15,296 nucleotides of DNA, taken from contig QMLW01000006.1 of the NCBI GenBank assembly GCA_003646935.1, positions 1 to 15,296 of the forward strand. The letters are read 5' to 3'. This DNA comes from Deltaproteobacteria bacterium (lineage in GTDB: Bacteria; Desulfobacterota; DSM-4660; Desulfatiglandales; B25-G16). The notes under the pieces are model-generated. The model saw nothing but the letters and a program-made list of their open reading frames with translations. It was not told the DNA's origin and ran no database searches. A program made the translations under genes and the position numbers. Below are positions 1,606 through 15,294 of this stretch, piece by piece. Numbering within the stretch: the first letter of the stretch is position 1; every line of letters begins with the position of its first letter.

Positions 1606-1626
1606 GTTTGGCGTTCGCCGTTAGCC
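1606..1626. repeat. short heptamer array (three 7-bp units)
   Basis: Three consecutive 7-base units lie just upstream of the radical SAM start: GTTTGGC at 1606, GTTCGCC at 1613 and GTTAGCC at 1620. They share the frame GTTnGCC. This is the first of several heptamer arrays in the window, and its consensus differs from the arrays at 8402 and 15001. Confidence 0.6.
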
Positions 1627-1668
1627 CCTTACATGCTGATGGTTTGACTGTATGGATTAGACAAGACA

Positions 1669-1730
1669 GGCGCCATAGGGCGCAGGGCACAAGGCTCAGG
1701 GTTCTCATGTTTTGCCCTGTGCCCCGCGCC
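1669..1730. repeat. heptamer array with facing inverted arms, between rarA and the radical SAM gene
   Basis: The left arm holds five 7-base steps: GGCGCCA 1669, TAGGGCG 1676, CAGGGCA 1683, CAAGGCT 1690 and CAGGGTT 1697. The right arm holds the complementary family in reverse: TTTGCCC 1711, TGTGCCC 1718 and CGCGCC 1725. The arms can pair (1678-1691 with 1719-1731, one mismatch) around a spacer of about 27 bases. The array ends six bases before the rarA stop codon, so the transcript of rarA would carry the hairpin and it might act in termination or 3'-end protection. No U-tract follows on the rarA strand, so a classical terminator is not supported. Confidence 0.7.
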
Positions 1731-1736
1731 TTTTCA

Positions 1737-3035
1737 TCATGAATCTTCAACCTGCTTTCTTTCAGTCATCCTCTTCCTTATCTCCTTCTCAAACCCCCTA
1801 TCATTGGGATGATAGAAGGTCTTGCTCCTCATCTTCGAGGGGAGGTATTCCTGTTTCGCTCGGCCTTGAGGGTAATTGTGGCTGTACTTATAGCCCTTTG
1901 AATAACCCAATTCTCTCATCAGCCTCGTGGGGGCATTTCTGAGATGCAGAGGTACCGGCTGAGGGCCAGTCTCCTCGATCTCCTGTAACACGGATTTCTC
2001 CGCTACATAGAGGGAGTTGCTCTTTGGTGCAGTAGCAAGATACACCACTGCTTGGGCGAGAGACAGCCTTGCCTCCGGCGGACCTACCTTTTCCCATGAC
2101 TGATATGAAGTAAGCGCAACTTCAAGCGCATGAGGGTCGGCTAAGCCAATGTCCTCGGAGGCAAATCGAATGAGTCTCCTGCCTATGAAAAGAGGATCCT
2201 CTCCTGCTTCCAGCATCCGGTAGAGCCAATAAAGGGATGCATGCGGGTCACTGCCCCGCATGCTTTTGTGAAGTGCCGATATAAGGTTGTAGTGTTCCTC
2301 ACCGTCCTTGTCGTATAAGAGCGGTTTCCTGTTGAGGGCCTTTGAAATCGCATCCACGGTTACAACCCTTTTACCATTCCCATCCGGCTGGACGTAATAA
2401 GCAGCCGATTCGAGATTATTAAGGGCAGTGCGAGCATCTCCATAGGAAATCTCTATGATGTAGCGGAAGGCATCTTCCTCGAGTTCGACACCCAGGGCTG
2501 CGAGACCTCTCCTGCTGTCCTGAACAGCCCTGTTTAGAATTATCGCCATATCATTGAACTCTAATGGATTAAGCGTCATAACCCTCGTTCTCGAAAGCAG
2601 TGGTGGGATAATCTCGAATGATGGATTCTGCGTGGTGGCCCCTATGAGGATTATCAGGCCGCTCTCCACATGGGGAAGAAACGCATCCTGCTGGGCCTTG
2701 TTGAAACGGTGGATCTCATCGACAAAGAGGATCGTCGGTTTTTGATCGTATCTGTGGTATCTCTTTGCCGCATCAATGATATCTCGTAATTCCTTGACCC
2801 CTGACAGGACCGCCGAGAACGATTCAAAATGGCACTCGCTGTACTGGGCAATCAGCCTAGCAATGGTGGTTTTACCAGAACCCGGAGGACCCCAGAATAG
2901 CACCGAAAACAAACTGCCTGTCTCGAGTGACCTCCTCAGGGCGCTCGCTGGACCGAGAATGTGATCCTGTCCCACGACTTCCTCAAAGCTCTCCGGTCTC
3001 ATTCTGGTGGCCAATGGGGCTGTCGTAAGATCCAT
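1737..3035 (-). CDS. rarA: replication-associated recombination protein A (RarA/MgsA) AAA+ ATPase
   Basis: A 432-residue AAA+ ATPase with the full RarA architecture. Walker [10 protein letters not shown] is at residues 49-57 and Walker [12 protein letters not shown] at 102-112. The sensor-1 stretch GATTQNPSF and the arginine-finger region LLSRTRV follow. The C-terminal MgsA tetramerisation and clamp-loader-like part includes the conserved [15 protein letters not shown] and [13 protein letters not shown] signatures. RarA acts at stalled replication forks, is related to clamp-loader subunits and to eukaryotic Mgs1/WRNIP1, and interacts with SSB. Length is normal. The ATG at 3033-3035 has AGGA about nine bases upstream. 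It is downstream of the receiver-domain gene, same strand, with a 138-base gap, and close to dnaE on the opposite strand. Confidence 0.96.
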
Positions 3036-3173
3036 TGCTTTGTCCTGTTTACTTCTCCTTAACCGCGCACCACATATCTGGGCAGGCCTGGCCCTGCAAA
3101 GGCACTATTGCAATTCCGCCATAAATGTAATCATCTTTTGGAAATAGGCACTATGGTTCCGCTTCTCTCAAGG

Positions 3174-3578
3174 TCACTCATGAACAGAGGCAACGGCATT
3201 CTCTATCATCTCATAGGTTTTATCCATGATGAGGGGTTTACTCATAATGAGATCCACGCCGGCATTACGCAACTCCTCTACGTTAGGCCCTTGCTCCCAT
3301 CGCCTCAGTAGTATGGTAGGTGTAATGTGATTGATCTCCTTGATTTTCTTTGCCACAATTAGACCGCTCATATCGGGAAGTTCCAGATCAATCACCACAA
3401 CAGCGAATTTACCCTTTCCCTTTTTAAAGGTACCTATCCCATTCCAGCCAACCGAACGGTTCACGACCCTATAGCCTTTTGCGGTCAGCATCCTGGCCAA
3501 TATGCCCCTGACCACATAATCATAGGCTATAAGGAGAACAGCAGTCCCTTCCACCTTGTCGTTTAGCGTTACTACCAT
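3174..3578 (-). CDS. stand-alone degenerate response-regulator receiver domain
   Basis: This is a single receiver (REC) domain of about 134 residues with no output domain. Numbering from the ATG at 3576-3578, the phospho-acceptor aspartate D64 is in the normal context VVVIDLELPDMSG, and the lysine is K114 in MSKPL. Two key positions are altered. The acidic pair is reduced to one aspartate (LLIAYDY, D20), and the conserved Thr/Ser after the fourth strand is arginine (TPTILLRR, R92). Phosphorylation or its usual read-out is therefore doubtful, and it may be a pseudo-receiver working by protein contact. No histidine kinase is nearby. The start is uncertain: GTG at 3593 or 3590 and GTG at 3554 are also possible, and none has a convincing ribosome binding site. 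It is upstream of rarA and may be co-transcribed. Confidence 0.72.
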   Translation of the reverse strand: MVVTLNDKVEGTAVLLIAYDYVVRGILARMLTAKGYRVVNRSVGWNGIGTFKKGKGKFAVVVIDLELPDMSGLIVAKKIKEINHITPTILLRRWEQGPNVEELRNAGVDLIMSKPLIMDKTYEMIENAVASVHE

Positions 3579-3593
3579 GAGGATATTCACCAC

Positions 3594-3946
3594 AGGTAAC
3601 GGATAATGAACCTACGCGCTTATCATGGTCACGATTTACGTGCACCATCAACGTTCATCAGCACGCTCGGTATATTCTTTATGCGAGCCATGTGAAGCAT
3701 CAGGAGCCTCTCAGAAAAGCAGTCCCGAGAGGTCCCTGTTGCGGTGAACGATTCGCGGAAAATATTGTAGAATTATTTTACCTAAAAAAGCTTGAAGCTC
3801 TCTTTTCTTTCCCTTATAACAATATGAGAGATCGCGATGGCGGTCGGCACGTTTCGTCCTCCTCATCTGTATCGATCTCGCACTGACGGTCACTGTTTCT
3901 GGGTACTTCGTAATCTATCCAATTTAACAACATTCGTCAAACACAT
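3594..3946. other. intergenic region between the receiver gene and dnaE (353 bases)
   Basis: No credible gene is seen on either strand; the short open frames here have no recognisable motif or ribosome binding site. It holds a candidate promoter towards dnaE (3792-3820). A weak hairpin pairs CCTCTC at 3707-3712 with GAGAGG at 3727-3732. The minus-strand promoter expected for the receiver and rarA genes was not identified convincingly. Confidence 0.6.
3792..3820 (+). promoter_or_regulatory. candidate sigma70-type promoter for dnaE
   Basis: A -35-like TTGAAG (3792-3797, 4 of 6) and a -10 TATAAC (3815-3820, 5 of 6) are separated by exactly 17 bases. Transcription would begin near 3827 and leave a leader of about 120 bases before the dnaE ATG. 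It is the best promoter-like pair seen in this intergenic region. Confidence 0.5.
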
Positions 3947-6900
3947 ATGTCCACAAAGTATACTAGCAGACCCGTAAAGGAAACCGGCCCTCCATTCGTT
4001 CATCTCCATGTGCACACGGAATTCAGCCTGCTCGATGGTGCGATCAGGATGGATAGGATGTTAAAAAAGGCCTCTAACCTTGGCATGGAATCCGTGGCTA
4101 TCACCGACCATGGAAATATGTTCGGCGCAGTGGAGTTTTACTTGCAGGCCATAAAGGAGGGTATCAAGCCTATCATAGGGTGCGAGGTATATATCGCACC
4201 CGGCAGTAGAACGGATAAGTCACCTGCAACGGATGGTCAGCCAAACGCATATCACCTCGTCCTTCTTGTCATGGATGAGAGGGGCTACAGGAATCTGAGC
4301 AGGCTTGTGACATTAGCTAACCTTGAGGGCTTCTACTACCACCCCAGGATCGATATGGAGCTTCTGAGGCAATACAATGGCGGCTTGATAGCCCTTTCAT
4401 CCTGCCTCAAGGGCCATGTGCCCTATTATCTGAGACTTGGAAGGCAAGAAGAGGCCAAGAGGTACGCCCGAGAGTTTGCATCTATATTCGATAATGAGCG
4501 GTTCTACCTAGAGGTAATGGCCAACAAGCTTCCCGATCAGTTGGTGGTAAACAAGGCCCTAAGAGAAATTGCCCACGAGCTTTCACTCCCCATAGTTGCT
4601 ACCAACGACTGTCACTATCTAAACAAAGAGGATGCAGAGGCCCATGATATCCTCTTATGTATCCAGACTGGCAAGAACGTGGAAGATCCCAACAGGTTGA
4701 AATTCTCCAGCGAAGAGTTCTATTTCAAATCCCCAGCGGAAATGGCCAGCGATCTGGAGGAGTTCCCGGAAGCCCTGGATAATACCGTGCGAATCGCTGA
4801 GAGATGTCACTATGAAATGCAGTTTGGTCAGTATAAATACCCTGTGTTCAAGGTCTCAGGCAATGTGAGCCTAGAAGAAAAATTGGAGCAGGAGGCCAGG
4901 GAAGGCCTTAAGGAGAGATTGGCTCGAAAGGAGTCCCTGGAGGGGCATATGGCCGGCGAGATGAAAAGGGAATACGAAGAACGGTTGGCCTATGAATTGG
5001 AAACCATCAAGAAGATGGGATTTGCTGGCTATTTCCTGATCGTCGCCGATTTCATCGATTATGCGAGGAAATCAGGCATTCCCGTCGGTCCAGGTAGGGG
5101 ATCAGCTGCCGGCTCTCTGACAGCCTATGCGCTCAGAATTACCGATATCGATCCAATCAGGTATGGGCTCCTCTTTGAGCGGTTCCTCAACCCAGGCAGG
5201 ATCAGCATGCCCGACATCGACATAGACTTCTGCATCAAGAACAGGGACAAGGTTATCGAGTATGTAAGCGAAAAATACGGAAGGGAGAATGTTTCCCAGA
5301 TAATAACGTTCGGCACCATGAAGGCCCGGGCCGCCATAAGAGATGTGGGACGCTCCCTCAACATGTCCTATGCAGAGGCAGATAGAATCGCGAAACTCAT
5401 TCCAGAGGGAATTAATGTTACCCTGGACGAGGCCATTGAGGCCGAGCCCCAGCTCAAGGCCCTGGAGGAAGGAACCGATGACGAGAGAAGGCTTTTAAGG
5501 ATAAGCAGGTCCCTTGAAGGCCTATCCAGGCATGCCTCTACCCATGCCTCGGGTATTGTCATCTCTGATAGGCCTTTGGTTGAGTATCTGCCATTGTTTA
5601 AGGGCCCCAATGGTGAAGTCATGACCCAGTACACAATGGATCAGGTAGCGCAACTCGGGCTTATCAAGTTCGATTTCCTGGGGCTAAAGACCTTGACCGT
5701 TATACAGCACACAGTGGACCTCATCAAAGAGACCACTGGCGAGGTTGTGAACCTAGATGAGATACGAATGGACGATGAGCAAACCTTCAAGCTTATCAGT
5801 GAGGGAAAAACCACTGGTGTATTTCAGCTGGAAAGCTCCGGCATGAAGGAACTCTTGAGGAATCTAAAGCCGGGCGTTTTTGAGGATGTCGTTGCATCAG
5901 TTGCCCTTTATCGTCCAGGCCCTCTCGGCAGCAACATGGTGGATGATTTTATAAAGAGGAAACACGGTGAAATTACGATCAAATTCCCCATTCCGCAACT
6001 GGAGGAAATATTAACGGAGACATATGGGGTCATAGTATACCAGGAGCAGGTTATGCGCATCGCCCAGCTCCTTGCCAACTATAGCCTCGCAGAGGCAGAC
6101 ATATTGCGGAAGGCTATCAGCAAAAAACAGCCTGAAGAGATGGAGCGACTGAGGGAACGATTTTTAGAGGGCACGAACATAAATCAAATAGATCCCGCAA
6201 AGGCGAGAAACGTTTATGAACTGATAGAGAAATTCGGGGGGTATGGTTTTAATAAATCCCATTCAGTAGCGTACGCTATGATAGCCTATCAAACCGCCTT
6301 TCTCAAGGCCCGCTATCCCGTGCAGTTCATGGCCGCCTTATTGACGGAGGATATGGGGAGTCAGGACAAGACCATTAAGAATATTGCGGAGTGCTGGGAT
6401 ATTGGCATTCCCATTCTTCCGCCCGATATTAACGAGAGCCAGGTCGATTTTGCTGTTGTCGGAGATAGCATCCGCTTCGGCCTGGCAGCGGTAAAAAACG
6501 TCGGCATTAAGGCTGTAGAAGCAATTGTCCAAGAGAGAGAAAGAGAGGGACCCTTTACCTCGCTCACAGAATTCTGCAGAAGGGTGGATAAATCAAAGGT
6601 AAATAAGAGGGTTTTGGAAGGTCTTATTCAGTGCGGCGCCTTTGACTTTACCAATGAATATCGATCTCGGCTCTTCGCCTCTCTGAACGACATCCTTGCC
6701 GCAGGGGGAATAAGCGAAGATCCAAACCAGCTCAATATGTTCGACCTTTTTCCATCAGGAGAGCCAGAAGGCGGTATCATTGAGTCAGAGGGATTGGACG
6801 AATGGGAAGACGATGAAAAGCTGCGGAGAGAAAAAGAATCCCTCGGATTTTACATCACCGGGCATCCTTTGGACAGATTCGCAGAGATTATAGGTCAATT

Positions 6901-7441
6901 AGCAACTTGTACCACACAGGAACTCTCGAACATTCAAGACAAATCAGTCGTTAAGCTCGCTGGCCTCATTAATAGTATGCGAGTAAAGAGAACGAGGAGA
7001 GGAGAGAAAATGGCCCTCATTAATGTGGAGGATAAAAGCGGCTTTGCCGAGGTTATCGTATTTCCGGACGTGTTTGCTCAATGCACCTCGGTGTTGCAGG
7101 ATGACAAGCCGCTTCTTATAACGGGAGAGGTGGAAGCCGGCGAAAATATAGTTAAGCTTAGGGCCCAAGATATCGTTGCCTTGGAAACGGTGAAGCAAAG
7201 ATCAGTAAGCTCGATCGTGATACCCATCAACCGGCAAGGAATCTCCCGTGAGAGCCTTATGCAATTAAGGGATCTTATCTTTAAGTATCCGGGTGAATGT
7301 CAGCTTAAGTTTCGGGTTGACCTTGATGGCAACGAAAAGGCAATGGTAACCACCCATAACCGGTATAGCATCGTGCCCAACGAGAGCCTGCTCGAGGAGA
7401 TAGAATCCCTTGTGGGGGCCAAAGTGATACGTGAGACATAG
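3947..7441 (+). CDS. dnaE: DNA polymerase III alpha subunit, DnaE1 type
   Basis: A 1164-residue replicative polymerase of normal length. Residues about 15-290 form the PHP domain (VHLHVHTEFSLLDG). All nine expected metal ligands seem kept: H21, H23, D30, H55, E80, H103, C153, D221 and H223. The palm motif MPDIDIDFC places catalytic aspartates at D425 and D427, and the third is D576 in KFDFLGL. VGPGRGSAAGS and the finger motifs (VYQEQVMRIAQ, LRKAISKKQ, FNKSHSVAYA) follow. A beta-clamp binding motif, QLNMFDLF, is at 928-935, and an OB fold lies at about 1000-1080. The protein catalyses chromosomal DNA synthesis within the polymerase III holoenzyme. The ATG at 3947 has no evident Shine-Dalgarno, but no other in-frame start lies before the PHP domain. 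It is transcribed divergently from the receiver and rarA genes. Confidence 0.98.
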   Translation: MSTKYTSRPVKETGPPFVHLHVHTEFSLLDGAIRMDRMLKKASNLGMESVAITDHGNMFGAVEFYLQAIKEGIKPIIGCEVYIAPGSRTDKSPATDGQPNAYHLVLLVMDERGYRNLSRLVTLANLEGFYYHPRIDMELLRQYNGGLIALSSCLKGHVPYYLRLGRQEEAKRYAREFASIFDNERFYLEVMANKLPDQLVVNKALREIAHELSLPIVATNDCHYLNKEDAEAHDILLCIQTGKNVEDPNRLKFSSEEFYFKSPAEMASDLEEFPEALDNTVRIAERCHYEMQFGQYKYPVFKVSGNVSLEEKLEQEAREGLKERLARKESLEGHMAGEMKREYEERLAYELETIKKMGFAGYFLIVADFIDYARKSGIPVGPGRGSAAGSLTAYALRITDIDPIRYGLLFERFLNPGRISMPDIDIDFCIKNRDKVIEYVSEKYGRENVSQIITFGTMKARAAIRDVGRSLNMSYAEADRIAKLIPEGINVTLDEAIEAEPQLKALEEGTDDERRLLRISRSLEGLSRHASTHASGIVISDRPLVEYLPLFKGPNGEVMTQYTMDQVAQLGLIKFDFLGLKTLTVIQHTVDLIKETTGEVVNLDEIRMDDEQTFKLISEGKTTGVFQLESSGMKELLRNLKPGVFEDVVASVALYRPGPLGSNMVDDFIKRKHGEITIKFPIPQLEEILTETYGVIVYQEQVMRIAQLLANYSLAEADILRKAISKKQPEEMERLRERFLEGTNINQIDPAKARNVYELIEKFGGYGFNKSHSVAYAMIAYQTAFLKARYPVQFMAALLTEDMGSQDKTIKNIAECWDIGIPILPPDINESQVDFAVVGDSIRFGLAAVKNVGIKAVEAIVQEREREGPFTSLTEFCRRVDKSKVNKRVLEGLIQCGAFDFTNEYRSRLFASLNDILAAGGISEDPNQLNMFDLFPSGEPEGGIIESEGLDEWEDDEKLRREKESLGFYITGHPLDRFAEIIGQLATCTTQELSNIQDKSVVKLAGLINSMRVKRTRRGEKMALINVEDKSGFAEVIVFPDVFAQCTSVLQDDKPLLITGEVEAGENIVKLRAQDIVALETVKQRSVSSIVIPINRQGISRESLMQLRDLIFKYPGECQLKFRVDLDGNEKAMVTTHNRYSIVPNESLLEEIESLVGAKVIRET

Positions 7442-7452
7442 AAGGACAGAAA

Positions 7453-7486
7453 GGGTGAAAGGGGGAAGGGGAGAGAGGGTGAAGGG
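7453..7486 (+). other. polypurine tract with a G-quadruplex motif after dnaE
   Basis: From the dnaE stop codon to about 7496 the plus strand is almost all purine, with about four pyrimidines in 55 bases. Within it are five G-runs: 7453-7455, 7461-7465, 7468-7471, 7477-7479 and 7484-7486. They are separated by loops of 5, 2, 5 and 4 bases. This satisfies the usual G3+N1-7 quadruplex pattern, and in RNA it would fall in the dnaE 3' untranslated region. Whether it folds is not known. Confidence 0.5.
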
Positions 7487-7492
7487 AAAAAG

Positions 7493-7541
7493 TGGTCAGT
7501 GAACAGTAAAAAAGTGTTCAGTTTTCAGCGTTCAGTGTTCG
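7493..7541. repeat. heptamer array, GTGTTCA family
   Basis: Four consecutive 7-base units lie on the plus strand: GTGTTCA at 7514, GTTTTCA at 7521, GCGTTCA at 7528 and GTGTTCG at 7535. Immediately upstream TGGTCAG (7493) and TGAACAG (7500) read as the same family in reverse complement, separated by an A-run. This is again two facing arms. There is no coding potential. Confidence 0.65.
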
Positions 7542-7580
7542 GGCGAAAGAGATTGATCAATTATCAGTCCCCAATAAGTT

Positions 7581-7608
7581 CTGGATGCCGGATCAAGTCC
7601 GGCATGAC
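7581..7608. repeat. dispersed palindromic repeat (hairpin)
   Basis: ATGCCGGA (7585-7592) and TCCGGCAT (7598-7605) form a perfect 8-bp stem with a five-base loop, flanked by CTGG and GACGC. Sequences of the form CTGGATGCCGG...CCGGCATGAC are, from general knowledge, a widespread intergenic repeat in proteobacterial genomes. Downstream of dnaE it could protect or end the transcript. No U-run directly follows, so a terminator call is not made. Confidence 0.6.
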
Positions 7609-7635
7609 GCTTAGAGTACTTTTTACGAAATCATC

Positions 7636-7674: not shown

Positions 7675-7680
7675 TCAAAT

Positions 7681-8391: not shown

Positions 8392-8401
8392 TGTTAATTC
8401 C

Positions 8402-8474
8402 TTACTGGTTGCTGGTTACTCGTTAGCCTATGCTAACAGCCAGTAACCAGCAACGATGAACGAGGAACGATAAG
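8402..8474. repeat. heptamer array forming a long hairpin, TTACTGG family
   Basis: The left arm has TTACTGG at 8402, TTGCTGG at 8409 and TTACTCG at 8416. The right arm carries the reverse-complement family in perfect phase: CTAACAG 8433, CCAGTAA 8440, CCAGCAA 8447, CGATGAA 8454, CGAGGAA 8461 and CGATAAG 8468. The next base begins the ATG of the Nudix gene. The arms pair over 13 perfect bp (8408-8420 with 8442-8454). An inner stem pairs GTTAGC 8422-8427 with GCTAAC 8432-8437 around a four-base loop. The GAGGA ribosome binding site (8462-8466) is itself part of a repeat unit. Confidence 0.8.
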
Positions 8475-8996: not shown

Positions 8997-8998
8997 CG

Positions 8999-9625
8999 TT
9001 ACTTCTTCTCCTCTTCTTTTTGACTTAAATCAGGAGGGTAAACAAATTTTGTGTTTATCTCGTAGGTCCAGGGAAGGTTCCACCATTGCCATCCATAAAA
9101 ACGGCGGTGATTGTAGCCGGGGATCTTGTTTCTCTTGGCCAATTGTCTATAGAACTTAAGTCTGTTCTCATCTTCAAAATAGGGGAAATAGGGGCCTTCA
9201 AATCCATCCTTCACGTTGTAGATGTTCTTAAATCCACTCTTTATGAGATCCCTGGCTGCAAGGATGCTTCGAGTGCCATCCCTGCATATTATAAGGAGGT
9301 TATTGGTCTTTTGGTATTTCTTGCTTATATCATCCACAAAGGATTTATTCTTTTTAGAGAATTGATATTCCCAGTTTTCACCTTTCTTTGCGAGGTTGCC
9401 ATTCCAAAAATAGTAGGGAAACAGATAGGCCATGGGGGGGTGACCAATGAACTGATACTCTGCCCTTGTTCTCACATCAATTAGGTACGTATTTGGAACG
9501 GTATTGAGCATGTCATAGGCCTCAATGGATAGAATATCCTTGGGTTCCTGTGCAAGAGCAGGCACAAAGGAAAGGGCCCACACTAACAGAAAAACCCCTA
9601 ACGGTAAAATAGGTATCTTCTTCAT
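8999..9625 (-). CDS. exported rhodanese-like domain protein
   Basis: Starting at the ATG 9623-9625 the protein has 208 residues. It begins with a clear signal peptide: MKK, a hydrophobic core at about 4-22, and a signal peptidase I site after ALA (23-25). This indicates a periplasmic location. A rhodanese fold follows, with YLIDVRTRAEY at 47-57 and the active-site loop CRDGTRS, catalytic C114. The family transfers sulfane sulfur or senses sulfur or redox state; the partner is unknown. The aromatic C-terminal tail (GWQWWNLPW) is not part of the core fold. An AGGAGAG site lies 13 bases upstream of this ATG. It would fit a TTG start at 9634 better, and a start as far up as 9652 keeps the frame open. 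It has its own promoter and converges with the Nudix gene. Confidence 0.87.
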   Translation of the reverse strand: MKKIPILPLGVFLLVWALSFVPALAQEPKDILSIEAYDMLNTVPNTYLIDVRTRAEYQFIGHPPMAYLFPYYFWNGNLAKKGENWEYQFSKKNKSFVDDISKKYQKTNNLLIICRDGTRSILAARDLIKSGFKNIYNVKDGFEGPYFPYFEDENRLKFYRQLAKRNKIPGYNHRRFYGWQWWNLPWTYEINTKFVYPPDLSQKEEEKK

Positions 9626-9681
9626 CGTAATCAACGCTCTCCTTGGCAACATGTGCCTTGTCGGTGAAAAATTATCACTAA

Positions 9682-9709
9682 ATTAAACAAAGTTGTAAGT
9701 CTTTGTCAA
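9682..9709 (-). promoter_or_regulatory. sigma70-type promoter for the rhodanese gene
   Basis: On the minus strand a perfect -35 TTGACA (9704-9709) is followed after 16 bases by TTTAAT (9682-9687, 5 of 6 to TATAAT). Transcription would begin near 9675, about 50 bases before the ATG at 9625, and the AGGAGAG ribosome binding site lies inside that leader. This is the strongest promoter match in the window. Confidence 0.6.
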
Positions 9710-9947
9710 TAAAAAAAGAAAAGAGAATATCGGAAGGATAGACACGATAGAGATCGATCCAGCCTATCAGAAAAAAGGTACCGCCTTCCTTTTAATGCAA
9801 GAGATGCTCGACTATATGGAGCAGGTAAGGGCGAATACCCTCTATCCACTCATAAATCGGCTTGATTGGGACCTTCTTCAATGTTTCGATGCCATGGGAT
9901 TAAGGAGAGGCGACATGATCAATCTCGAATTCAAGATGGAAGATTGA
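9699..9947 (+). pseudogene. C-terminal remnant of a GNAT acetyltransferase
   Basis: An open frame without a start codon runs from 9699 to the TGA at 9945-9947. From 9738 it reads as the second half of a GNAT N-acetyltransferase. IDTIEIDPAYQKKGTAFLL carries the acetyl-CoA loop (Q/R-x-x-G-x-G/A form, here QKKGTA). It continues through MQEMLDYMEQ and the motif-B-like LINRLDWDLLQCFDAMGLRR to MINLEFKMED at the end. The first half of the domain is absent: the frame meets a TAA at 9696-9698 and runs into the rhodanese promoter. ATGs within it (9795 onward) would give only a fragment. Most likely a deletion removed the 5' part. Its 3' end overlaps the small cysteine-rich gene on the other strand. Confidence 0.7.
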
Positions 9948-10075
9948 TTGTCTGCGCTCCGTTGATATGCGAGATACTCCTGGCACTCCTCTTTATAGGG
10001 GCACTTCTTCTCGCATATTCGAACATCGATTCTGGGGGTGTTCTTCTTTCTCGTACAGAATAGGTAATCAGCCAT
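9878..10075 (-). CDS. small four-cysteine protein, function unknown
   Basis: A 65-codon frame with a good ribosome binding site (AGAGGT, eight bases before the ATG at 10073-10075). The first 38 residues look like a compact metal-binding protein: C7, then C21-x3-C25-x5-C31 in VRICEKKCPYKEEC, rich in lysine and glutamate. Four cysteines could bind zinc or an Fe-S cluster. From about residue 40 the sequence is antisense to the GNAT remnant and has no such character. The native protein may therefore have ended near residue 38-40 and been extended by the rearrangement that truncated its neighbour. I do not recognise a named family. A TTGACA box lies upstream. Confidence 0.55.
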   Translation of the reverse strand: MADYLFCTRKKNTPRIDVRICEKKCPYKEECQEYLAYQRSADNQSSILNSRLIMSPLLNPMASKH

Positions 10076-10507
10076 AAATTTTTACCTCTTACAATAAAAT
10101 TATTTACAATTAAATATATTTAAATTATAATTTATATATTTAGTAATATAAAGAAATTAATATGTCAATTATTTTTATTAAAATAATAAAATCGTTACAC
10201 GATTTTATCTAACGCCTGCCCGCCATCGGCTTCGCCTTCAGGCGAGGCGGGCGGGCGACGTTATCGCTCCTATGGTGAAAGGCTAAAATCTCTATCCCTG
10301 TCGCAAGTCGTTCGACCAAGAAGCTCTCGACAGGCTACAGGGTATTTCGAAATCTTTGCTTCAGCCCTTGAGGGCTTCAGCACCGCACGTTTGCCTTAAA
10401 AAAGATTTTAACTTCTGTTTTGATCATCCTGCTCGCAAGAAGCGGGGAATTCAAATTTAAAAAATCACATTGTCCCATATAAACCTAATGCGCGACGATA
10501 AAAGATA
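10076..10507. other. gene-free region: AT island followed by hairpin-rich DNA
   Basis: No coding frame is credible. From 10077 to about 10195 the DNA is almost pure A/T and includes, on the minus strand, a perfect TTGACA (10163-10168) that could drive the small cysteine-rich gene; no good -10 at standard spacing is seen. From 10186 the bipartite hairpin repeat begins. From 10284 to 10410 there are nested inverted repeats: TAAAATCT 10284-10291 with AGATTTTA 10403-10410; CCCTGT 10296-10301 with ACAGGG 10337-10342; the palindrome ATTTCGAAAT at 10344-10353; and AGCCCT 10363-10368 with AGGGCT 10371-10376. It could be a structured RNA or decayed DNA. No known RNA family was recognised. Confidence 0.5.
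10186..10257. repeat. bipartite hairpin repeat, copy 1
   Basis: The first part is a perfect 9-bp inverted repeat, ATAAAATCG (10186-10194) and CGATTTTAT (10200-10208), with a five-base loop. The second part is a GC-rich hairpin. Its outer arms CGCCTGCCCGCC (10213-10224) and GGCGGGCGGGCG (10246-10257) pair with one mismatch, and TCGCCT/AGGCGA form the inner stem, with a seven-base bulge. The core CGGCTTCGCC is at 10227-10236. The same design recurs at 12533-12574. Confidence 0.65.
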
Positions 10508-11797
10508 TTGAACCGAAAAATAAACAGATCGAGACGTAGACTTCGATGGGATAGGATTATCCTCATCCTTTTTGGAGCAGGATTACTTGTTGCGACTGTA
10601 TTCTTTCACTTTCGATCTCATGACGATGTAGTAGCAATAGAAATTAATAAGAGCTCGACCGTATCTAGTTACCGTGATTACTTCGAGGAAAAAAAGGGAT
10701 GGGTTTCCAATCATGAAAAGATAGGTCTCACCATAACTGGAGGCAAAAGCTTTTATGAGCTATTAAGCCAATACTACATCTCTGCTCAGGATATCATCCG
10801 AATAAATGAAGCTATCAAGCCATTCTACGATCTGTCGAGGATCAAAGAGGGACAAAGAATCGACGTTTGGCTCAACGGGAAAGAAGAAAAAGTAGACAAA
10901 CTCTCACTTGAACTCTCCCCGGATAAGATACTCCTTGTTACCAGAAATGGCCCTGAATTCCTCCCCAGCATTGTGGCCATCTCTTATATATCGCTTCCGA
11001 CCTTGATCAGCGGGGAGATCCAAAATTCCTTTTATGAATCCGGCATCGAGGGAGGTATGCCACCGGATATAATCATGGATATTGCTGATGTGTTCGCGTG
11101 GGATATAGACTTTCTCGTTGATATTAGACCAGGAGATACCTTTCAGGTACTATTTGAACAGCACTATAGAAAAGGCAATTGTATAGGGCATGGAAAGGTC
11201 CTTGCAGCAAGGTTCGTGAATCAACACAAGCCCTTCACTTCATTCTATTTCACTGACAGCAGCGGTAGATCATCCTATTATGATAAAAACGGTAAAAGCC
11301 TAAGGAAGGCCTTTCTGAAATCCCCCCTTCGTTACAGGAGAATCAGCTCCTATTTCTCTAAAAGGCGATTTCATCCGATTTTAAAAATCTATCGGCCCCA
11401 CTATGGTATCGATTATGCCGCCCCCATAGGCACGCCGGTGGAATCCATTGGAGATGGCAGAATCACGTTCATCGGGTGGAAGGGGGGATACGGACGGTAT
11501 ATAAAAATACGGCACAATCATATCTATGAAACTGCATATGGGCATCTGAGCAGGTTTGCAAGGGGGCTCAAGAAGGGCTCAAAGGTAAAACAAGGGGATA
11601 TCATAGGGTTTGTTGGCTCATCCGGGCTTTCAACCGGGCCTCACCTTGACTTTAGTGTGACTAAAAGGGGAAAATACATAAATCCCTTAAAGATCAAATC
11701 ACCACCTGTCTTAAGGCTAAGCACCCATGATAAAGAACGGTTTCATGCGGTAATTACCCAAATGGAGAGATTATGGCAAGAGGATCAAGCTTCCTGA
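10508..11797 (+). CDS. M23-family murein endopeptidase, MepM/Csd3-like
   Basis: A 429-residue envelope protein. A basic N-terminus is followed by one membrane segment (about 16-34) that anchors it facing the periplasm. An OapA/LysM-like region comes next (about 68-140), then a Csd3-type middle domain (about 170-260) and the M23 peptidase domain (about 285-400). Zinc-site residues are H298 and D302 in HYGID, with H346 in YGHLS. In the last motif the usual HxH reads H379-L-D381 (GPHLDF), so one histidine ligand is replaced by aspartate. These enzymes cut peptide cross-links of peptidoglycan. The start is a TTG at 10508; a stop codon lies nine bases upstream in frame and no ATG or GTG precedes the membrane segment. 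The ribosome binding site is weak. The 3' end overlaps the next gene by 25 bases, so the two are probably co-expressed. Confidence 0.9.
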   Translation: MNRKINRSRRRLRWDRIILILFGAGLLVATVFFHFRSHDDVVAIEINKSSTVSSYRDYFEEKKGWVSNHEKIGLTITGGKSFYELLSQYYISAQDIIRINEAIKPFYDLSRIKEGQRIDVWLNGKEEKVDKLSLELSPDKILLVTRNGPEFLPSIVAISYISLPTLISGEIQNSFYESGIEGGMPPDIIMDIADVFAWDIDFLVDIRPGDTFQVLFEQHYRKGNCIGHGKVLAARFVNQHKPFTSFYFTDSSGRSSYYDKNGKSLRKAFLKSPLRYRRISSYFSKRRFHPILKIYRPHYGIDYAAPIGTPVESIGDGRITFIGWKGGYGRYIKIRHNHIYETAYGHLSRFARGLKKGSKVKQGDIIGFVGSSGLSTGPHLDFSVTKRGKYINPLKIKSPPVLRLSTHDKERFHAVITQMERLWQEDQAS

Positions 11798-12522
11798 GGG
11801 GGCTGCTTATAGTTACATTATTTGTCCTGCCGTCAATGGGGCGTGCCTATATTCTCCCCCCGAGTCAGATCATAGAGTTTATGGTCAGGAAATTTGCCTC
11901 AGTGAACACACTGCGAATAACCCAACTCACGAAAATCGTGGATCTGGAAAGGGAAATGGAAATGGTATTCGGGGAGTCAATCGCCGTGATGTCTCCCGAC
12001 CTTTATAGATCAGAGGTGGCGGGGCAATCGGGCAAACGGATTATCGTTCGCAATGGATTGAGAACAGTCAAGATCATCGATGGTGATATCGTCCACGAAA
12101 AGGAGAACGTGACTTTCCCTTATCATTTTCTCATGGTAGCCCAAGATTCAAGACATCTATTGAAAGACTTGGAGGAGTTGGGTATCAATCTTGATATGGT
12201 CTCCCTTACCAGGTTTGGGGGTAGAATTGCATATCTGATTGGGAATAAGGAAGAGGGAAGCTCACGGCTTCTCGTTGATAAGGATTTCTTCATACCGCTC
12301 CTGCTCCAATATGGTAACGTGGCTTTCTCTGCCTCTGATTTCGCCCAGATAAAGCAGGGATTATGGTATCCCCGCTATATACTCTACTCATATACAGGAG
12401 CGAACATCGAAGATTATATTCAGGAGGAATATAGAATAAAGGACATCTTCATAAACCCTTCCATAGATGCCTCTCTCTTTGATGTATCCACCATTAGATC
12501 CCAATTTGAAAAGAGAAAGTAA
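11773..12522 (+). CDS. exported LolA-like periplasmic protein
   Basis: A 249-residue protein with an N-terminal signal peptide: R9 near the start, a hydrophobic core at 10-21, and possible cleavage after GRA at 23-25. The rest is alternating beta-strand-like sequence such as KRIIVRNGLRTVKIIDGDIV and SSRLLVDKDFFIPLLLQYG. It resembles the LolA/LolB-type open-barrel fold of outer-membrane lipoprotein sorting proteins, but the similarity is by overall pattern and not by a diagnostic motif. The ATG has GGAGAG three to five bases upstream, inside the end of the M23 gene. The 25-base overlap with that gene suggests translational coupling and a shared role in the envelope. No lipobox cysteine is present. 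Confidence 0.78.
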   Translation: MARGSSFLRGLLIVTLFVLPSMGRAYILPPSQIIEFMVRKFASVNTLRITQLTKIVDLEREMEMVFGESIAVMSPDLYRSEVAGQSGKRIIVRNGLRTVKIIDGDIVHEKENVTFPYHFLMVAQDSRHLLKDLEELGINLDMVSLTRFGGRIAYLIGNKEEGSSRLLVDKDFFIPLLLQYGNVAFSASDFAQIKQGLWYPRYILYSYTGANIEDYIQEEYRIKDIFINPSIDASLFDVSTIRSQFEKRK

Positions 12523-12532
12523 TCATTCAAGT

Positions 12533-12574
12533 TATAAAATCGATTCGCGATTTTATATAGCGCGGCTTCGCCGC
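12533..12574. repeat. bipartite hairpin repeat, copy 2
   Basis: A perfect 10-bp inverted repeat, TATAAAATCG (12533-12542) and CGATTTTATA (12548-12557), has a five-base loop. It is followed by a GC-rich hairpin, GCGGC (12562-12566) and GCCGC (12570-12574), with a three-base loop. The stem sequence ATAAAATCG/CGATTTTAT, the loop length and the 10-base core CGGCTTCGCC (12563-12572) are shared with copy 1. Copy 1 has twelve more bases before the core. It begins ten bases after the LolA-like stop codon. An A-run follows on the plus strand, so it would be a terminator only for a minus-strand transcript. Confidence 0.65.
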
Positions 12575-12666
12575 TTAAAAAAATGGGATTTCCTTTACTA
12601 TCAAGTTAAAAGCTTGAAATCCTCAATCCTAAATACTAAACAATATCAAGGGCAAAGCATGATGCG

Positions 12667-15000
12667 ATGATGAGCCATGATGGAGAGAAACAATATATCC
12701 AGGTAGCCGTCTGCCTTCCAGTCAGCGGAACATTTACCTATACCGTGGGCGGTACGCTCGCCCGCGAGATAGAGGCGGGCAAAAGGGTCCTCGTTCCCTT
12801 CTCAAAGCAAAGATCAATAGGCTATATACTCAGGACCATACCCGCTGAAGAAAGGAAAGGCCTAAAGGATATACTATCGGTCATCGATCCATATCCCCTT
12901 TTTCCACCGGACATGGTCGAATTTTTCGAATGGCTATCCAGCTACTACCACTATCCGATAGGCATGGTGATTAAAGCCGCCCTTCCCACCGGACTCAATG
13001 TGGCTGCCAGGGGCGGTCAAGGTATAAGCACTAAAGGCTGGCAAGATAGCGTTGGCCTGTTGAAACGGGTGTTCGTTACCGTAAGGAGTGGCGTCCATAT
13101 CGATGGATCTTTTTTCGACCGGAAGGGAGGATCCAGCCCGATTGTGTCTCGCCATGGCAGGCGGGCTGAAAACGAATCGGCATTTCTTGAGCTCCTTCAC
13201 GCCAAAAGAGAACTCCCCCTGGGAGAGCTCATAAGGAATTTCCGCAATGGGCGTTATCTCGTCGATAAATGGGTTAGGAAGGGAGTTCTCAAGAAATCAC
13301 GCAAACCGGTGGTAAGGGATGTCAGTGGCGAGGAGATCTTTATCTCACCAAAGCCCCCGCAGCTTAATTCTACTCAAAAGGAGATTCTGGAGGTGATCGA
13401 GGGAAAGATCAGGGAAGGCCGGTATCACTCCTATCTTCTTCACGGTGTTACCGACAGCGGCAAAACAGAGGTCTACTACCATGCCGTCAGAGTCGCGATC
13501 CAGCTCGGGAAGCAATCAATCATAATGGTGCCCGAGATAGCACTGACGGTTCAACAGGCATCCCTGTTTAAGGCCAGGCTCAAGAAACGGGTGGCCATTC
13601 TTCACAGCGCGCTGTCGCCGGGACAAAGGTATGAGCAATGGATCAGTATTGTACGGGGGGAAGCAGATGTCGTCATTGGGGCAAGATCAGCACTTTTCGC
13701 CCCATTACCCAAGCTCGGGCTTATTATTCTCGATGAAGAGCATGACCCCTCATATAAGCAGGACGAGAAATTCCGTTACCAAGCGAGAGATGCCGCTGTT
13801 ATGAGGTCAAAACTCCTGAATGCCCTTGTCCTCTTGGGCTCTGGAACACCCTCCATTCAATCCTATCATAATGCAGTAAGCGGAAAATATGGGCTCCTTC
13901 ACATGCCTGAGAGGATCGGCAAGAAAGGGGCTCCTGCAATCAACATAATAGATATGACGGAATTTGAGGATACAAAAAGCAGAGGCGGCATTTTGAGCCC
14001 CCCGCTGCAAGAGGCTATCGGCGAAAACCTGGCGAAAGCAGAGCAGACTATACTATTTCTTAACAGGAGGGGATTCAGCGCCCTGTATTTGTGCAGATTT
14101 TGCGGAAACACGGTCAGGTGTCCGAACTGCGACCTCAGCCTCACCTATCACAAAGATAGCGATACCTTGCTCTGCCACTACTGTGGCTATGGGATACAGC
14201 CTCCAAAGATCTGTCCATCGTGTGGTAAAGAGCAGTTAAAACCGTACGGATTCGGCACGGAACGGGTGGTGGATACCTTAGCTGAGGTGTTCCCGGATGC
14301 GAGGGTAGAGAGGATGGACAGAGATACCATGAGACATAAGGGCGAGGTGCATCAGGTACTGAAGCGTTTCCTCCACCGAGGAACCGATATCCTCGTTGGC
14401 ACACAGATGGTTACCAAGGGACACCACTTTCCCTATGTGACCCTCGTGGGGGTGATCTCGGCAGACCTATCGCTTAATTGGCCGGACTTTCGGGCAGGTG
14501 AGACAACCTTTCAGCTGCTCTCCCAGGTAGCTGGCAGGACGGGGAGAGGGGCTTCTCCTGGAAGGGTTTTCATCCAGACATACAACCCATCCCACTATGC
14601 GATTCGTGCGGCCGAAGATTATGACTATAGAGGATTCTTCTCCAGGGAGATACGGCTCAGAAGACAGCTCAACTATCCTCCCTTTTCCTCCATTGCAAAT
14701 CTCCGTTTTCTCGGAAACAGCAAAGGCAAGACAGAACAAATCGCAGGGCATATGAAAATGAGGATCGGTCAAATCATAAAAAAGCAACAAAAAGGCAAGA
14801 AGGACGTTCAAGTCCTTGGTCCTGTGGAGGCACCCATAGCAAAGCTGAAGGGCAAATATCGACAACAGATTCTTATCAAATCCCGGCGCCCCGCATACCT
14901 CAATCAATTGCTAAACGAGGTTGATAGGATCTCTTCTCAAGTCCTCGGTGCACGCGGCGTGAGGCTAATCATCGATATCGATCCGTATCAAATGATCTAG
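12667..15000 (+). CDS. priA: primosomal protein N' (replication restart helicase PriA)
   Basis: A 777-residue superfamily 2 DNA helicase with the whole PriA layout. The N-terminal 3'-DNA-binding domain begins YIQVAVCLPVSGTFTY. A winged-helix region lies at about 180-235. Walker A GVTDSGKT is at 260-267 (K266) and the Walker B box DEEH at 356-359. The PriA-specific zinc module has all eight cysteines: C476, C479, C485, C488, C503, C506, C516 and C519. GTQMVTKGHHFP and the arginine-rich AGRTGRG motif VI follow. PriA recognises abandoned forks and D-loops and reloads the replicative helicase. The start is ATG 12667 or 12670; the site upstream is weak (AAGGGC, about 13 bases away). The stop codon abuts a heptamer array. 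Confidence 0.97.
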   Translation: MMSHDGEKQYIQVAVCLPVSGTFTYTVGGTLAREIEAGKRVLVPFSKQRSIGYILRTIPAEERKGLKDILSVIDPYPLFPPDMVEFFEWLSSYYHYPIGMVIKAALPTGLNVAARGGQGISTKGWQDSVGLLKRVFVTVRSGVHIDGSFFDRKGGSSPIVSRHGRRAENESAFLELLHAKRELPLGELIRNFRNGRYLVDKWVRKGVLKKSRKPVVRDVSGEEIFISPKPPQLNSTQKEILEVIEGKIREGRYHSYLLHGVTDSGKTEVYYHAVRVAIQLGKQSIIMVPEIALTVQQASLFKARLKKRVAILHSALSPGQRYEQWISIVRGEADVVIGARSALFAPLPKLGLIILDEEHDPSYKQDEKFRYQARDAAVMRSKLLNALVLLGSGTPSIQSYHNAVSGKYGLLHMPERIGKKGAPAINIIDMTEFEDTKSRGGILSPPLQEAIGENLAKAEQTILFLNRRGFSALYLCRFCGNTVRCPNCDLSLTYHKDSDTLLCHYCGYGIQPPKICPSCGKEQLKPYGFGTERVVDTLAEVFPDARVERMDRDTMRHKGEVHQVLKRFLHRGTDILVGTQMVTKGHHFPYVTLVGVISADLSLNWPDFRAGETTFQLLSQVAGRTGRGASPGRVFIQTYNPSHYAIRAAEDYDYRGFFSREIRLRRQLNYPPFSSIANLRFLGNSKGKTEQIAGHMKMRIGQIIKKQQKGKKDVQVLGPVEAPIAKLKGKYRQQILIKSRRPAYLNQLLNEVDRISSQVLGARGVRLIIDIDPYQMI

Positions 15001-15035
15001 TTGCTGGTTGCTCGTCACTCGTTGCTGGTTTCTCG
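15001..15035. repeat. heptamer array directly after priA, TTGCTGG family
   Basis: Exactly five 7-base units start at the first base after the priA stop codon: TTGCTGG 15001, TTGCTCG 15008, TCACTCG 15015, TTGCTGG 15022 and TTTCTCG 15029. It belongs to the same family, on the same strand, as the array at 15267 and the left arm at 8402. Confidence 0.8.
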
Positions 15036-15067
15036 TTTGGATAAAATATAAAGAAGGAGGGACAGGA

Positions 15068-15251
15068 TTGAAAGCGAAAAGCTATAGAGATTTAGAGATT
15101 TATCAACGATGAAACTGAAGTCCATCTAAATTTCTTACATGACTCGGGATACATTAATGATCAGGATTATGATAGTTTAAAGGAAGAAATTTACAAAGTG
15201 GGCAGAAAAATCAATAAATTCATTCAATACGTTGAAAAAGAGTGGAAATAA
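15068..15251 (+). pseudogene. broken S23 / 23S rRNA intervening-sequence (four-helix bundle) protein gene
   Basis: A strong ribosome binding site (AAGGAGGG, 15053-15060) leads with seven-base spacing to a TTG start at 15068. The first 14 codons read like the N-terminus of the four-helix bundle S23/IVP family (KSYRDLEIYQ) and then stop at TGA 15110-15112. In another frame, from about 15108 to the TAA at 15249-15251, comes the family's C-terminal part. DETEVHLNFLHDSGYI is followed by a run ending GRKINKFIQYVEKEW. Members are usually about 115-130 residues, so roughly the middle half has been deleted and the frame lost. The family occurs as ORFs inside 23S rRNA insertions and elsewhere, and is structurally related to the Avd protein of diversity-generating retroelements. 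Heptamer arrays flank it on both sides. Confidence 0.72.
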
Positions 15252-15266
15252 CAAATTGGATAATCG

Positions 15267-15294
15267 TTACTGGTTACTTGTTACTCGTTCATGA
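15267..15294. repeat. heptamer array after the S23 remnant, TTACTGG family
   Basis: Four 7-base units: TTACTGG 15267, TTACTTG 15274, TTACTCG 15281 and TTCATGA 15288, the last diverged. It has the same orientation as the array at 15001 and may continue past the window edge. Confidence 0.7.

What the first reader, a model, noticed from the sequence alone, without database searches (positions are those of the whole stretch)
1606..15294. At least seven intergenic arrays with a strict 7-bp (sometimes 8-bp) period, in several sequence families
Arrays occur at 1606, 1669, 7493, 7636, 8402, 15001 and 15267. Consensus units differ (GTTnGCC, CAGGGCA, GTGTTCA, AACCTTTG, TTACTGG), yet period, short length (3-6 units) and intergenic placement are shared. 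Several are paired as facing inverted arms. Shared period without shared sequence suggests a common generating mechanism (slippage, templated addition or a repeat-specific enzyme) and not descent of a single repeat.
Basis: seen in the sequence. Interest (0 to 1): 0.75.

Follow-up and report, generated by a model that had tools for sequence, protein, structure and literature searches.

The report
Seven-base repeats ending mobile elements
The short 7-base repeat rows between genes look like the end pieces, or leftovers, of small mobile DNA elements that carry a four-helix-bundle protein gene of unknown function, which would give a source for a class of bacterial repeats that has long lacked one.

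Summary
Most of the arrays are real: 5 of the 7 listed exceed shuffled DNA, 1669 is borderline, 1606 is chance-level. In 675,753 bp of the same assembly, periods 7 and 8 are strongly enriched, 51 of 58 segments noncoding. Unit number varies between sister species in 7-bp steps.

PF05635 genes (TIGR02436, "four helix bundle"/23S IVP/S23) in this family, in other families of the phylum, in other phyla and on cyanobacterial plasmids are often bracketed by period-7 (sometimes 8 or 9) arrays, mostly inverted copies of each other. The unit differs between loci but follows the protein clade even where flanking DNA is unrelated (Mantel, 0 of 999). The window's 15001/15267 arrays enclose a decayed PF05635 gene; that junction is empty, solo-palindrome or PF05635-filled in relatives. 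Cyanobacterial plasmids show junctions with and without the element at five places, and one solo element inside a PF05635 gene.

Best reading: ends or relics of a PF05635-encoding mobile element. Protein-array binding and transposition chemistry are inferred; no constant target duplication was seen, and no reverse transcriptase is consistently present.

The parts
1606..1626 (+). claimed GTTNGCC array (3 units)
   Evidence: score 6.5; 161 of 300 shuffles as good: not beyond chance
1677..1704 (+). GGCRCAR-type period-7 array, left arm of a palindrome
   Evidence: score 8.5; 12 of 300 shuffles; palindrome with 1713-1730, ssDNA fold z -3.4
1713..1730 (-). inverted partner arm (TGCCCTG type)
   Evidence: fold of 1665-1735; as an array alone not beyond chance (240 of 300)
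7449..7482 (+). purine-rich period-8 array just after the dnaE stop
   Evidence: score 11; 1 of 300 shuffles
7513..7540 (+). period-7 array, TTCAGTG family
   Evidence: score 11; 1 of 300; similarity 0.58 to a PF05635-flanking array of the same assembly, L286
7636..7671 (-). period-8 array, TGAACCTT family, ending 9 nt before the DUF374 start
   Evidence: score 13; 0 of 300; similarity 0.77 to the ends of the PF05635 element of contig C11 (L276)
8402..8425 (+). GTTRCTS period-7 array, left arm of a solo palindrome after the DUF374 stop
   Evidence: score 9.5; 2 of 300; similarity 0.83 to the PF05635 element ends of L169; fold z -6.6
8440..8470 (-). GTTRCTS-type inverted right arm, ending 4 nt before the NUDIX start
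   Evidence: score 11.5; 0 of 300; inverted score 13, shuffled-flank maximum 8.5
12618..12640 (+). weak period-7 array before priA
   Evidence: score 11; 1 of 300; no inverted partner
14997..15038 (+). GTTRCTS period-7 array starting at the priA stop
   Evidence: score 12.5; 0 of 300; similarity 0.63 to L169 ends
15060..15218 (+). decayed PF05635 (four-helix-bundle) gene between the two GTTRCTS arrays
   Evidence: 24.8 bits, below the family cut-off, one TGA and one TAG inside; counterpart without the internal loss at the same junction in G008
15266..15289 (+). second GTTRCTS array, direct orientation, at the contig end
   Evidence: score 12; 0 of 300; similarity 0.75 to L169 ends

Best explanation
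The arrays are the end arrays, or gene-less relics, of small mobile elements. The full element is: array of an imperfect 7-bp (or 8/9-bp) unit, a PF05635 four-helix-bundle gene, then the same unit inverted. It sits mostly in short junctions between genes, in the best-seen case filling the gap from the stop codon of one gene to the start codon of the next. Loss of the gene leaves a solo palindrome (array, core, inverted array) such as 8402-8470; decay leaves cases such as 14997-15289. Inferred: the PF05635 protein recognises its own unit, so arrays and protein evolve and move together, and solo elements can be moved in trans. Inferred: after insertion the arrays change length by whole units through slippage or recombination. 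The strand-transfer enzyme is unknown.
For: Bracketing: 12 of 30 PF05635 loci have arrays on both sides against 3 of 498, 1 of 118 and 1 of 42 other ORFs. Larger set: 57 of 88 have both (39 of 60 in the family, 18 of 28 in other families of the phylum); upstream and downstream arrays are inverted copies (median similarity 0.64 inverted, 0.15 direct, 0.17 across loci; inverted above direct in 51 of 57). Named genomes, mostly of other phyla or orders: 21 of 29. Cyanobacterial plasmids: upstream array in 10 of 10, both sides in 6 of 10. Control family PF01797 in the same ten genomes: 0 of 26. Specificity: at protein identity of 0.6 or more with unrelated flanks, 18 of 26 pairs share the unit in the same orientation against 0.9-9% in the lower classes; Mantel r 0.307, 0 of 999 permutations. 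Link to solo arrays: 46 of 57 noncoding arrays of the assembly resemble PF05635-end arrays of the same family, against 9 (column-permuted) and 8 (arrays from outside the family). Mobility: the junction after priA is empty in G009 and G013, solo in G017 and G011, filled by one PF05635 clade in G008 and G003 and another in G014 and G002, decayed in the window; junctions with and without the element on cyanobacterial plasmids; a 182-bp solo element inside a PF05635 gene whose other 419 aligned columns are 412 identical with an uninterrupted copy.
Against: 31 of 88 PF05635 genes lack arrays on one or both sides. Three genomes of family f11 hold 85-181 GTTRCTS pattern hits but 0-1 PF05635 match. 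No target duplication of constant length was seen. PF05635 has no known catalytic domain. The whole-flank inverted-similarity test is not specific: 13 of 26 PF01797 loci also pass it. Some pairs of arrays are direct, not inverted (e.g. L336, L356, L388), as is the window's second GTTRCTS array. Many loci are homologous, so counts are not independent. A looser ORF control gave 37 of 660 with arrays on both sides, partly neighbours of PF05635 genes. Window arrays 1677 and 7513 match PF05635 ends only at 0.48 and 0.58.
Confidence: 0.78

Rival explanations
1. Simple repeats by slippage: the arrays arise independently wherever DNA polymerase slips in 7-bp steps in unconstrained spacers, and PF05635 genes happen to lie in such spacers.
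For: Whole-unit gaps between species (13 of 33 against 1 of 16); the published slippage proposal (Mrazek 2007, second-hand); arrays without PF05635 in f11 genomes.
Against: Does not give inverted copies on the two sides of one gene family, shared units between related proteins at unrelated sites, or insertion of a whole palindrome. PF01797 genes in the same genomes have arrays on both sides in 0 of 26.
Confidence: 0.06
2. Intervening-sequence-like RNA element: the inverted arrays pair in the transcript, loop out the insert and are cut by RNase III, so the insert is tolerated in operons; spread is at the RNA level.
For: PF05635 is the IVS protein and IVSs are bordered by complementary sequences (PMC4990558); PF05635 is co-directional with both neighbours in 60 of 74 against 112 of 179; the element spans stop to start; sense strand more stable in 16 of 23 sister-genus spacers.
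Against: No sense G-U excess in the arms (102 against 124, p 0.16); 10 of 20 sense-stable in the assembly's own spacers; two antisense cyanobacterial copies; no rRNA at 40 loci; no reverse transcriptase match in 11 of 18 genomes.
Confidence: 0.09
3. Regulatory arrays: the heptamers are binding sites through which PF05635 proteins (or a host protein) control their own and neighbouring genes, not element ends.
For: Unit follows protein clade; arms abut stop and start codons in the sister-genus set (19 of 24 forward arms, 17 of 20 inverted arms); earlier authors proposed regulator sites or translational control (PMC2700814, PMC4679880).
Against: Filled and empty states at single junctions, insertion inside a gene, and no common function among the neighbours seen; the arm position is weak in the assembly itself (4 of 8 and 3 of 6). 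Binding and mobility do not exclude each other.
Confidence: 0.07

Closest known systems
23S rRNA intervening sequence (IVS) with S23p/IVP ORF
   Same: PF05635-family ORF bordered by complementary sequences; sporadic, called selfish or parasitic (PMC4990558 abstract and introduction)
   Different: lies between protein genes, not in rRNA (40 loci); ends are tandem 7/8/9-bp arrays with clade-specific units; many copies per genome
Cyanobacterial STRR heptamer repeats
   Same: period-7 intergenic repeats, hairpin-forming (one passage of PMC2670836; Calothrix heptanucleotides cited in PMC4692102)
   Different: here tied to a protein-coding element; the passages seen do not mention PF05635
GGGNATC repeats of Xanthomonas/Nostoc and TAACTGA repeats of Beggiatoaceae
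   Same: mostly intergenic heptamer arrays, single or as inverted pairs, often between aligned ORFs, unit number varying (PMC4692102; PMC4679880)
   Different: each described as one unit family without an encoded protein; proposed roles are G-quadruplexes or translational regulation
Geobacter metallireducens paired tandem heptanucleotide sites
   Same: tandem heptamers in pairs on opposite strands (passages and figure legends, PMC2700814)
   Different: interpreted as global regulator sites; what lies between the pairs was not examined here
REP/RAYT systems (recalled)
   Same: a coding element plus many non-coding palindromic intergenic relatives
   Different: RAYTs are Y1 transposases (recalled); PF01797 loci here have arrays on both sides in 0 of 26
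Diversity-generating retroelement Avd
   Same: PF05635 resembles Avd (passages of PMC10053308)
   Different: no reverse transcriptase match in 11 of 18 genomes searched, among them G005 with 24 PF05635 matches

Membership tests
23S rRNA IVS | encodes an S23p/PF05635 protein | tested here: met
   one representative matches TIGR02436 and PDB 2gsc. By recall, not every IVS has an ORF
23S rRNA IVS | inserted in an rRNA gene | tested here: not met
   no rRNA in 40 of the 60 PF05635 loci at Rfam gathering scores
23S rRNA IVS | bordered by complementary sequences | tested here: met
   57 of 88 genes have both arrays, inverted above direct similarity in 51 of 57
23S rRNA IVS | excised from RNA by RNase III | not testable with these tools
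   indirect only: no sense-strand G-U excess in the arms
Cyanobacterial STRR | tandem 7-bp intergenic repeats in several unit families | tested here: met
Cyanobacterial STRR | identity with a published STRR unit | not tested
   no published unit list was at hand; the Nostoc units are read
Simple sequence repeat by slippage | unit-number variation between close relatives | tested here: met
   13 of 33 gaps inside arrays are 7 bp against 1 of 16 outside
Simple sequence repeat by slippage | no linked coding element | tested here: not met
REP/RAYT | association with a Y1 transposase | tested here: not met
   0 of 26 PF01797 loci have arrays on both sides
Diversity-generating retroelement | reverse transcriptase in the genome | tested here: not met
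   match in 7 of 18 draft genomes; template and variable repeats were not looked for
Classical DNA transposon | terminal inverted sequences | tested here: met
Classical DNA transposon | target-site duplication of fixed length | tested here: inconclusive
   none constant by eye at the junctions or the L402/L403 insertion
Classical DNA transposon | known transposase or recombinase domain | tested here: inconclusive
   one representative (L276, 132 aa) matches TIGR02436 above its cut-off and two 'hypothetical protein' families below theirs; other proteins were not scanned

The most novel reading that the evidence does not exclude
PF05635/S23 four-helix-bundle proteins are the mobility factors of a widespread, undescribed class of mobile element. 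Each protein clade recognises its own 7-, 8- or 9-bp unit, arrayed and inverted at the element ends; gene-less palindromic copies move in trans. This class would be the source of most heptameric repeats reported in bacterial genomes, including cyanobacterial STRRs, and rRNA intervening sequences would be the members that landed in rRNA.
Probability: 0.45. Interest if true: 0.95.

Novelty: new variant of a known kind. Interest (0 to 1): 0.85.

Why it matters
Heptameric tandem repeats in bacteria have been described several times under different names, without a settled source in the papers seen here. A protein family of unknown function (S23/IVP/four-helix bundle) that is bracketed by clade-specific inverted heptamer arrays offers one cause for them. 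It predicts which unit occurs in which genome, gives a biochemical function to test for PF05635, and suggests how intervening sequences spread inside and outside rRNA. It may also explain why such repeats turn up in operon junctions such as cas6-cas4 and nrdB-nrdA.

Tried and rejected
RNA hairpin as the selected form: no G-U asymmetry and no sense/antisense difference in the assembly's own spacers (10 of 20), though 16 of 23 in the sister-genus set were sense-stable. Reverse transcriptase in trans: no match in 11 of 18 genomes (drafts, so absence is not proof). 23S IVS: no rRNA at 40 loci. Array 1606: chance-level. Whole-flank inverted similarity as a specific test: no longer a main argument, because PF01797 loci pass it in 13 of 26. 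Phage or viral carriage: no match in phages or viral contigs for the one protein used. Naming by the DUF374 protein failed; the dnaE scan worked. Literature: the listings (no paper found) showed no paper that links heptamer arrays with PF05635; the library lacks most subscription journals.

Rows dropped before counts: one search rejected 28 of 78 pairs (under 85% identity or under 70 columns) and merged reciprocals only partly, leaving 40; the 13 seven-bp gaps include one reciprocal repeat and lie at 6 distinct places. One search had 99 hits, 90 with usable flanks; one search dropped 2 duplicates (88) and searched periods 5-12 (54 of its 57 double arrays have both best periods 7-9). One search dropped 2 with short flanks (29 left). 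One search kept 64 of the 78 loci with both arrays, those with inverted similarity above 0.4. One search kept arrays of at most 80 bp; at least 2 of its 57 are the ends of the contig C11 element that is also in the library. One search skipped 4 of 30. The loci are the 30 that each call returned, not a random draw. Searches took 20 of 30 loci each. Of 15 plasmid records, 10 were fetched; four Riemerella records and the second Calothrix brevissima record were not. The array threshold was 8, 8.5 and 10.
Full report
1. Observation. A lag-correlation scan finds 5 period-7 and 3 period-8 segments in the window, all noncoding; 100 dinucleotide shuffles average 0.00 and 0.02, and other periods from 4 to 15 give 0-2. 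The window's genes are ordinary: radical SAM, MgsA/RarA-type AAA, response regulator, dnaE, DUF374, NUDIX, rhodanese, M23 peptidase and priA. The assembly is a 429-contig draft, 73.88% complete. Its nearest named relatives by DnaE are uncultured MAGs: CSMAG_1613 (79%, titled Pseudomonadota) and M55B121 (73%, titled Deltaproteobacteria).

2. Genome scale. In 61 contigs (675,753 bp) there are 35 period-7 and 23 period-8 segments, 51 of 58 noncoding, against shuffle means of 1.7 and 1.0. Periods 9, 14, 15 and 16 are also raised (13-14 each), and 12 and 18 mostly in coding DNA; periods 4-6, 10, 11, 13, 17, 19 and 20 give 0-4. Several unit families recur: GTTRCTS, GAWACTK, GGCRCAA, TTCAGTG, AATGCAA, and the 8-bp WTGGAATA. 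19 of 51 noncoding arrays have an inverted partner within 300 bp, 0 of 51 with shuffled flanks. Arrays lie in co-directional spacers more than expected by length (23 of 29 against 60%, p 0.037). In a sister genus, on contigs chosen for their arrays and partly orthologous to each other, forward GTTRCTS arms are nearer the upstream stop than the next start in 19 of 24 and inverted arms nearer the start in 17 of 20; the assembly itself shows this weakly (4 of 8 and 3 of 6) (counted).

3. Unit-number change. Among five genomes of one genus (mostly 91-97% identical DNA), 40 orthologous array pairs gave 33 gaps inside arrays, 13 of them exactly 7 bp, against 1 of 16 outside (Fisher p 0.019). The 13 lie at 6 distinct places, so events are fewer than gaps.

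4. Presence and absence at one place. After the stop codon, the dnaE-DUF374 junction is 2 to 3 nt in six relatives (G017, G009, G013, G011, G015, G004), 239 nt with three array types in the window, 80-87 nt with a GTTRCTS element in G003, G008 and G012, and about 300 nt or more of other repeats in G005 and G014. The junction after priA is more telling. It is empty (TAATG overlap, or 3 nt more) in G009 and G013; a solo palindrome in G017 and G011; filled by a PF05635 gene between GTTRCTS-type arrays in G008 and G003; filled by a different PF05635 clade between other period-7 arrays in G014 and G002; and in G005 it holds the arms of that second type without the gene. In the window it holds GTTRCTS arrays around a decayed PF05635 gene (15060-15218, 24.8 bits, below cut-off, two stops). 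L267 of G012 shows a third PF05635 clade just upstream of the same downstream gene, but its contig starts there, so the priA side is not seen.

5. PF05635 is bracketed by arrays. PF05635 has 2 to 24 matches in each of ten genomes of the family and none in 14 control genomes. Of 30 loci, 18 have an array within 350 bp and 12 on both sides; other ORFs give 64 and 3 of 498 in the assembly, 27 and 1 of 118 in the sister genus, 8 and 1 of 42 in other relatives. Over 88 genes, 57 have arrays on both sides, usually with matching periods: (7,7) 41, (8,8) 5, (9,9) 5. The two arrays of a locus are inverted copies (median similarity 0.64 inverted, 0.15 direct; across loci 0.17; inverted above direct in 51 of 57). 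The same is seen in other families of the phylum (18 of 28) and in named genomes, among them Schekmanbacteria, Nitrospirae, Zixibacteria, Omnitrophota and Ratteibacteria (21 of 29 genes; 22 of the 44 genomes searched had a match). A control family of mobile genes, PF01797, in the same ten genomes gives 0 of 26. Cautions: a looser ORF control gave 37 of 660, partly because neighbours share an array; and whole-flank inverted similarity, which 68 of 88 PF05635 loci pass, is also passed by 13 of 26 PF01797 loci, so only the tandem arrays are specific.

6. Unit follows protein. For 64 loci, pairs of proteins at 0.6-0.8 identity with unrelated outer flanks share the array unit in the same orientation in 11 of 19 cases, above 0.8 in 7 of 7; in the four lower identity classes it is 0.9%, 2.3%, 3.9% and 9.0%. 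Opposite-orientation sharing is 0 in both upper classes. Mantel r is 0.307, and 0 of 999 permutations reach it. So array and gene occur together at unrelated places, and the unit diverges with the protein. I infer recognition of the unit by the protein; no binding was tested. A representative matches TIGR02436 and PDB 2gsc, chain XCC0516.

7. Solo arrays resemble element ends. 46 of 57 noncoding arrays of the assembly (periods 7 to 9) resemble PF05635-flanking arrays of the same family above 0.6, against 9 for column-permuted controls and 8 for PF05635 arrays from outside the family; at least 2 of the 57 are themselves ends of a PF05635 element. Window arrays 8402, 7636, 15267 and 15001 match at 0.83, 0.77, 0.75 and 0.63; 7513 and 1677 only at 0.58 and 0.48. 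In a 148-genome sample of the phylum, the 15 genomes with GTTRCTS hits carry 6.5 PF05635 matches on average against 2.1 in the other 133; relatedness is not corrected for, and the reversed control pattern also has hits in some genomes. Against this, the three f11 genomes have 85-181 GTTRCTS hits and 0-1 PF05635 match.

8. Cyanobacteria. tblastn of one PF05635 protein against plasmids found 15 records, 11 of them cyanobacterial. Ten cyanobacterial regions were fetched. All ten have a period-7 or period-8 array upstream (that of L394 is weak) and six on both sides: for example AGTAGGG and its inverse between nrdB and nrdA (Nostoc edaphicum) and AACAGGG/CCCTGTT (Nostoc C052); the long AAAAGCT/AAAAGCC rows between cas6 and cas4 (Pseudanabaena) read in the same direction. 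Gaps beside the gene carry arrays in 16 of 20 cases, other gaps of the same loci in 4 of 12 (p 0.02).

9. Sites with and without the element. On plasmids of Nostoc and related cyanobacteria, homologous junctions exist with and without it at five places: TraM-hyp, two junctions of a three-gene row, cas6-cas4, and nrdB-nrdA. They differ in cleanness: the three-gene row has 0-3 nt when empty, nrdB-nrdA 40 nt, TraM-hyp 52 nt with other sequence, and cas6-cas4 its own 245-nt spacer beside 99%-identical flanks. Two Nostoc strains have the same protein record at the same junction of related plasmids, which may be one old insertion. In a third, the gene is interrupted by a 182-bp solo palindrome whose arms carry the same unit; the other 419 aligned columns are identical in 412. 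This is the most direct evidence that solo elements insert. I see no target duplication of constant length at these joints.

10. What did not support a richer mechanism. Arm mismatches are not biased to sense-strand G-U (102 against 124, p 0.16), and folding does not prefer the sense strand in the assembly's spacers (10 of 20), although it did in 16 of 23 of the selected sister-genus set. PF05635 is co-directional with both neighbours in 60 of 74 against 112 of 179 for small ORFs (p 0.005), which selection on operons could explain; two cyanobacterial copies are antisense to both neighbours. A reverse transcriptase match is found in 7 of 18 draft genomes.

11. Known work. Heptamer repeats are described in Beggiatoaceae, cyanobacteria and Bacteroidetes (PMC4679880: abstract and two sections), Xanthomonas and Nostoc (PMC4692102: abstract and two sections), Geobacter metallireducens (PMC2700814: passages), and as STRR hairpins (PMC2670836: one passage). 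IVS elements with an S23p ORF are described in PMC4990558 (abstract and introduction), and the PF05635/Avd resemblance in PMC10053308 (passages). None of the parts read links the repeats to PF05635, and the searches named in Tried and rejected listed no paper that does. RAYT and general transposon features here are recalled.

12. Verdict. Shown: array statistics, frequent inverted bracketing of PF05635 across phyla, clade-unit correlation, filled/empty/solo/decayed states at one junction, insertion of a solo element. Inferred: protein-array binding, movement in trans, and that most heptamer repeats elsewhere have this source. Unknown: the strand-transfer chemistry. I call it a new variant of a known kind because IVS elements and heptamer repeats are both known; the link between them and the element outside rRNA is what I found no report of.

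Noticed in passing
window 7586-7604: REP-like palindrome (TGCCGGATCAAGTCCGGCA) between the 7513 and 7636 arrays, so the dnaE-DUF374 spacer is a nest of several repeat types (read).
   Followed up: no
window 10211-10260: GC-rich palindrome (GCCTGCCCGCC...GGCGGGCGGG); similar sequences appear in array-bearing spacers of G012 and G014.
   Followed up: no
L166 (G008) against L153 (G014): A 159-bp difference inside a GTTRCTS array: a palindromic element beginning CAGGCTGTTGCCGAAATCCC lies within the array in G014; similar sequence borders arrays in L138, L151 and L155.
   Followed up: partly
DUF374-NUDIX junction of G008 (L089): A large palindromic repeat lies in the core of the GTTRCTS palindrome, which is uninterrupted in G012 and G003.
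   Followed up: partly
contigs C8, C14, C20, C30, C31, C34, C51, C53, C56 of the assembly: Near-identical copies of an 8-bp-period array (ATGGAATAATGGAATGG...), several near contig ends, as expected of a dispersed repeat that breaks assembly; a PF05635 gene of G005 (L318) has similar ends.
   Followed up: partly
G035, G071, G106 (family f11): 85 to 181 GTTRCTS pattern hits per genome with 0-1 PF05635 match: the source of these arrays is unexplained.
   Followed up: no
L157 (G003): The PF05635 gene of the priA junction carries about 100 bp more than its counterpart in G008.
   Followed up: no
L388, L389, L394: Cyanobacterial PF05635 genes sit inside CRISPR-cas operons (cas6-cas4 twice, cas10-cmr3 once), so they could be mistaken for cas accessory genes.
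   Followed up: partly
L336, L356, L388: PF05635 loci whose two arrays read in the same direction instead of inverted.
   Followed up: no
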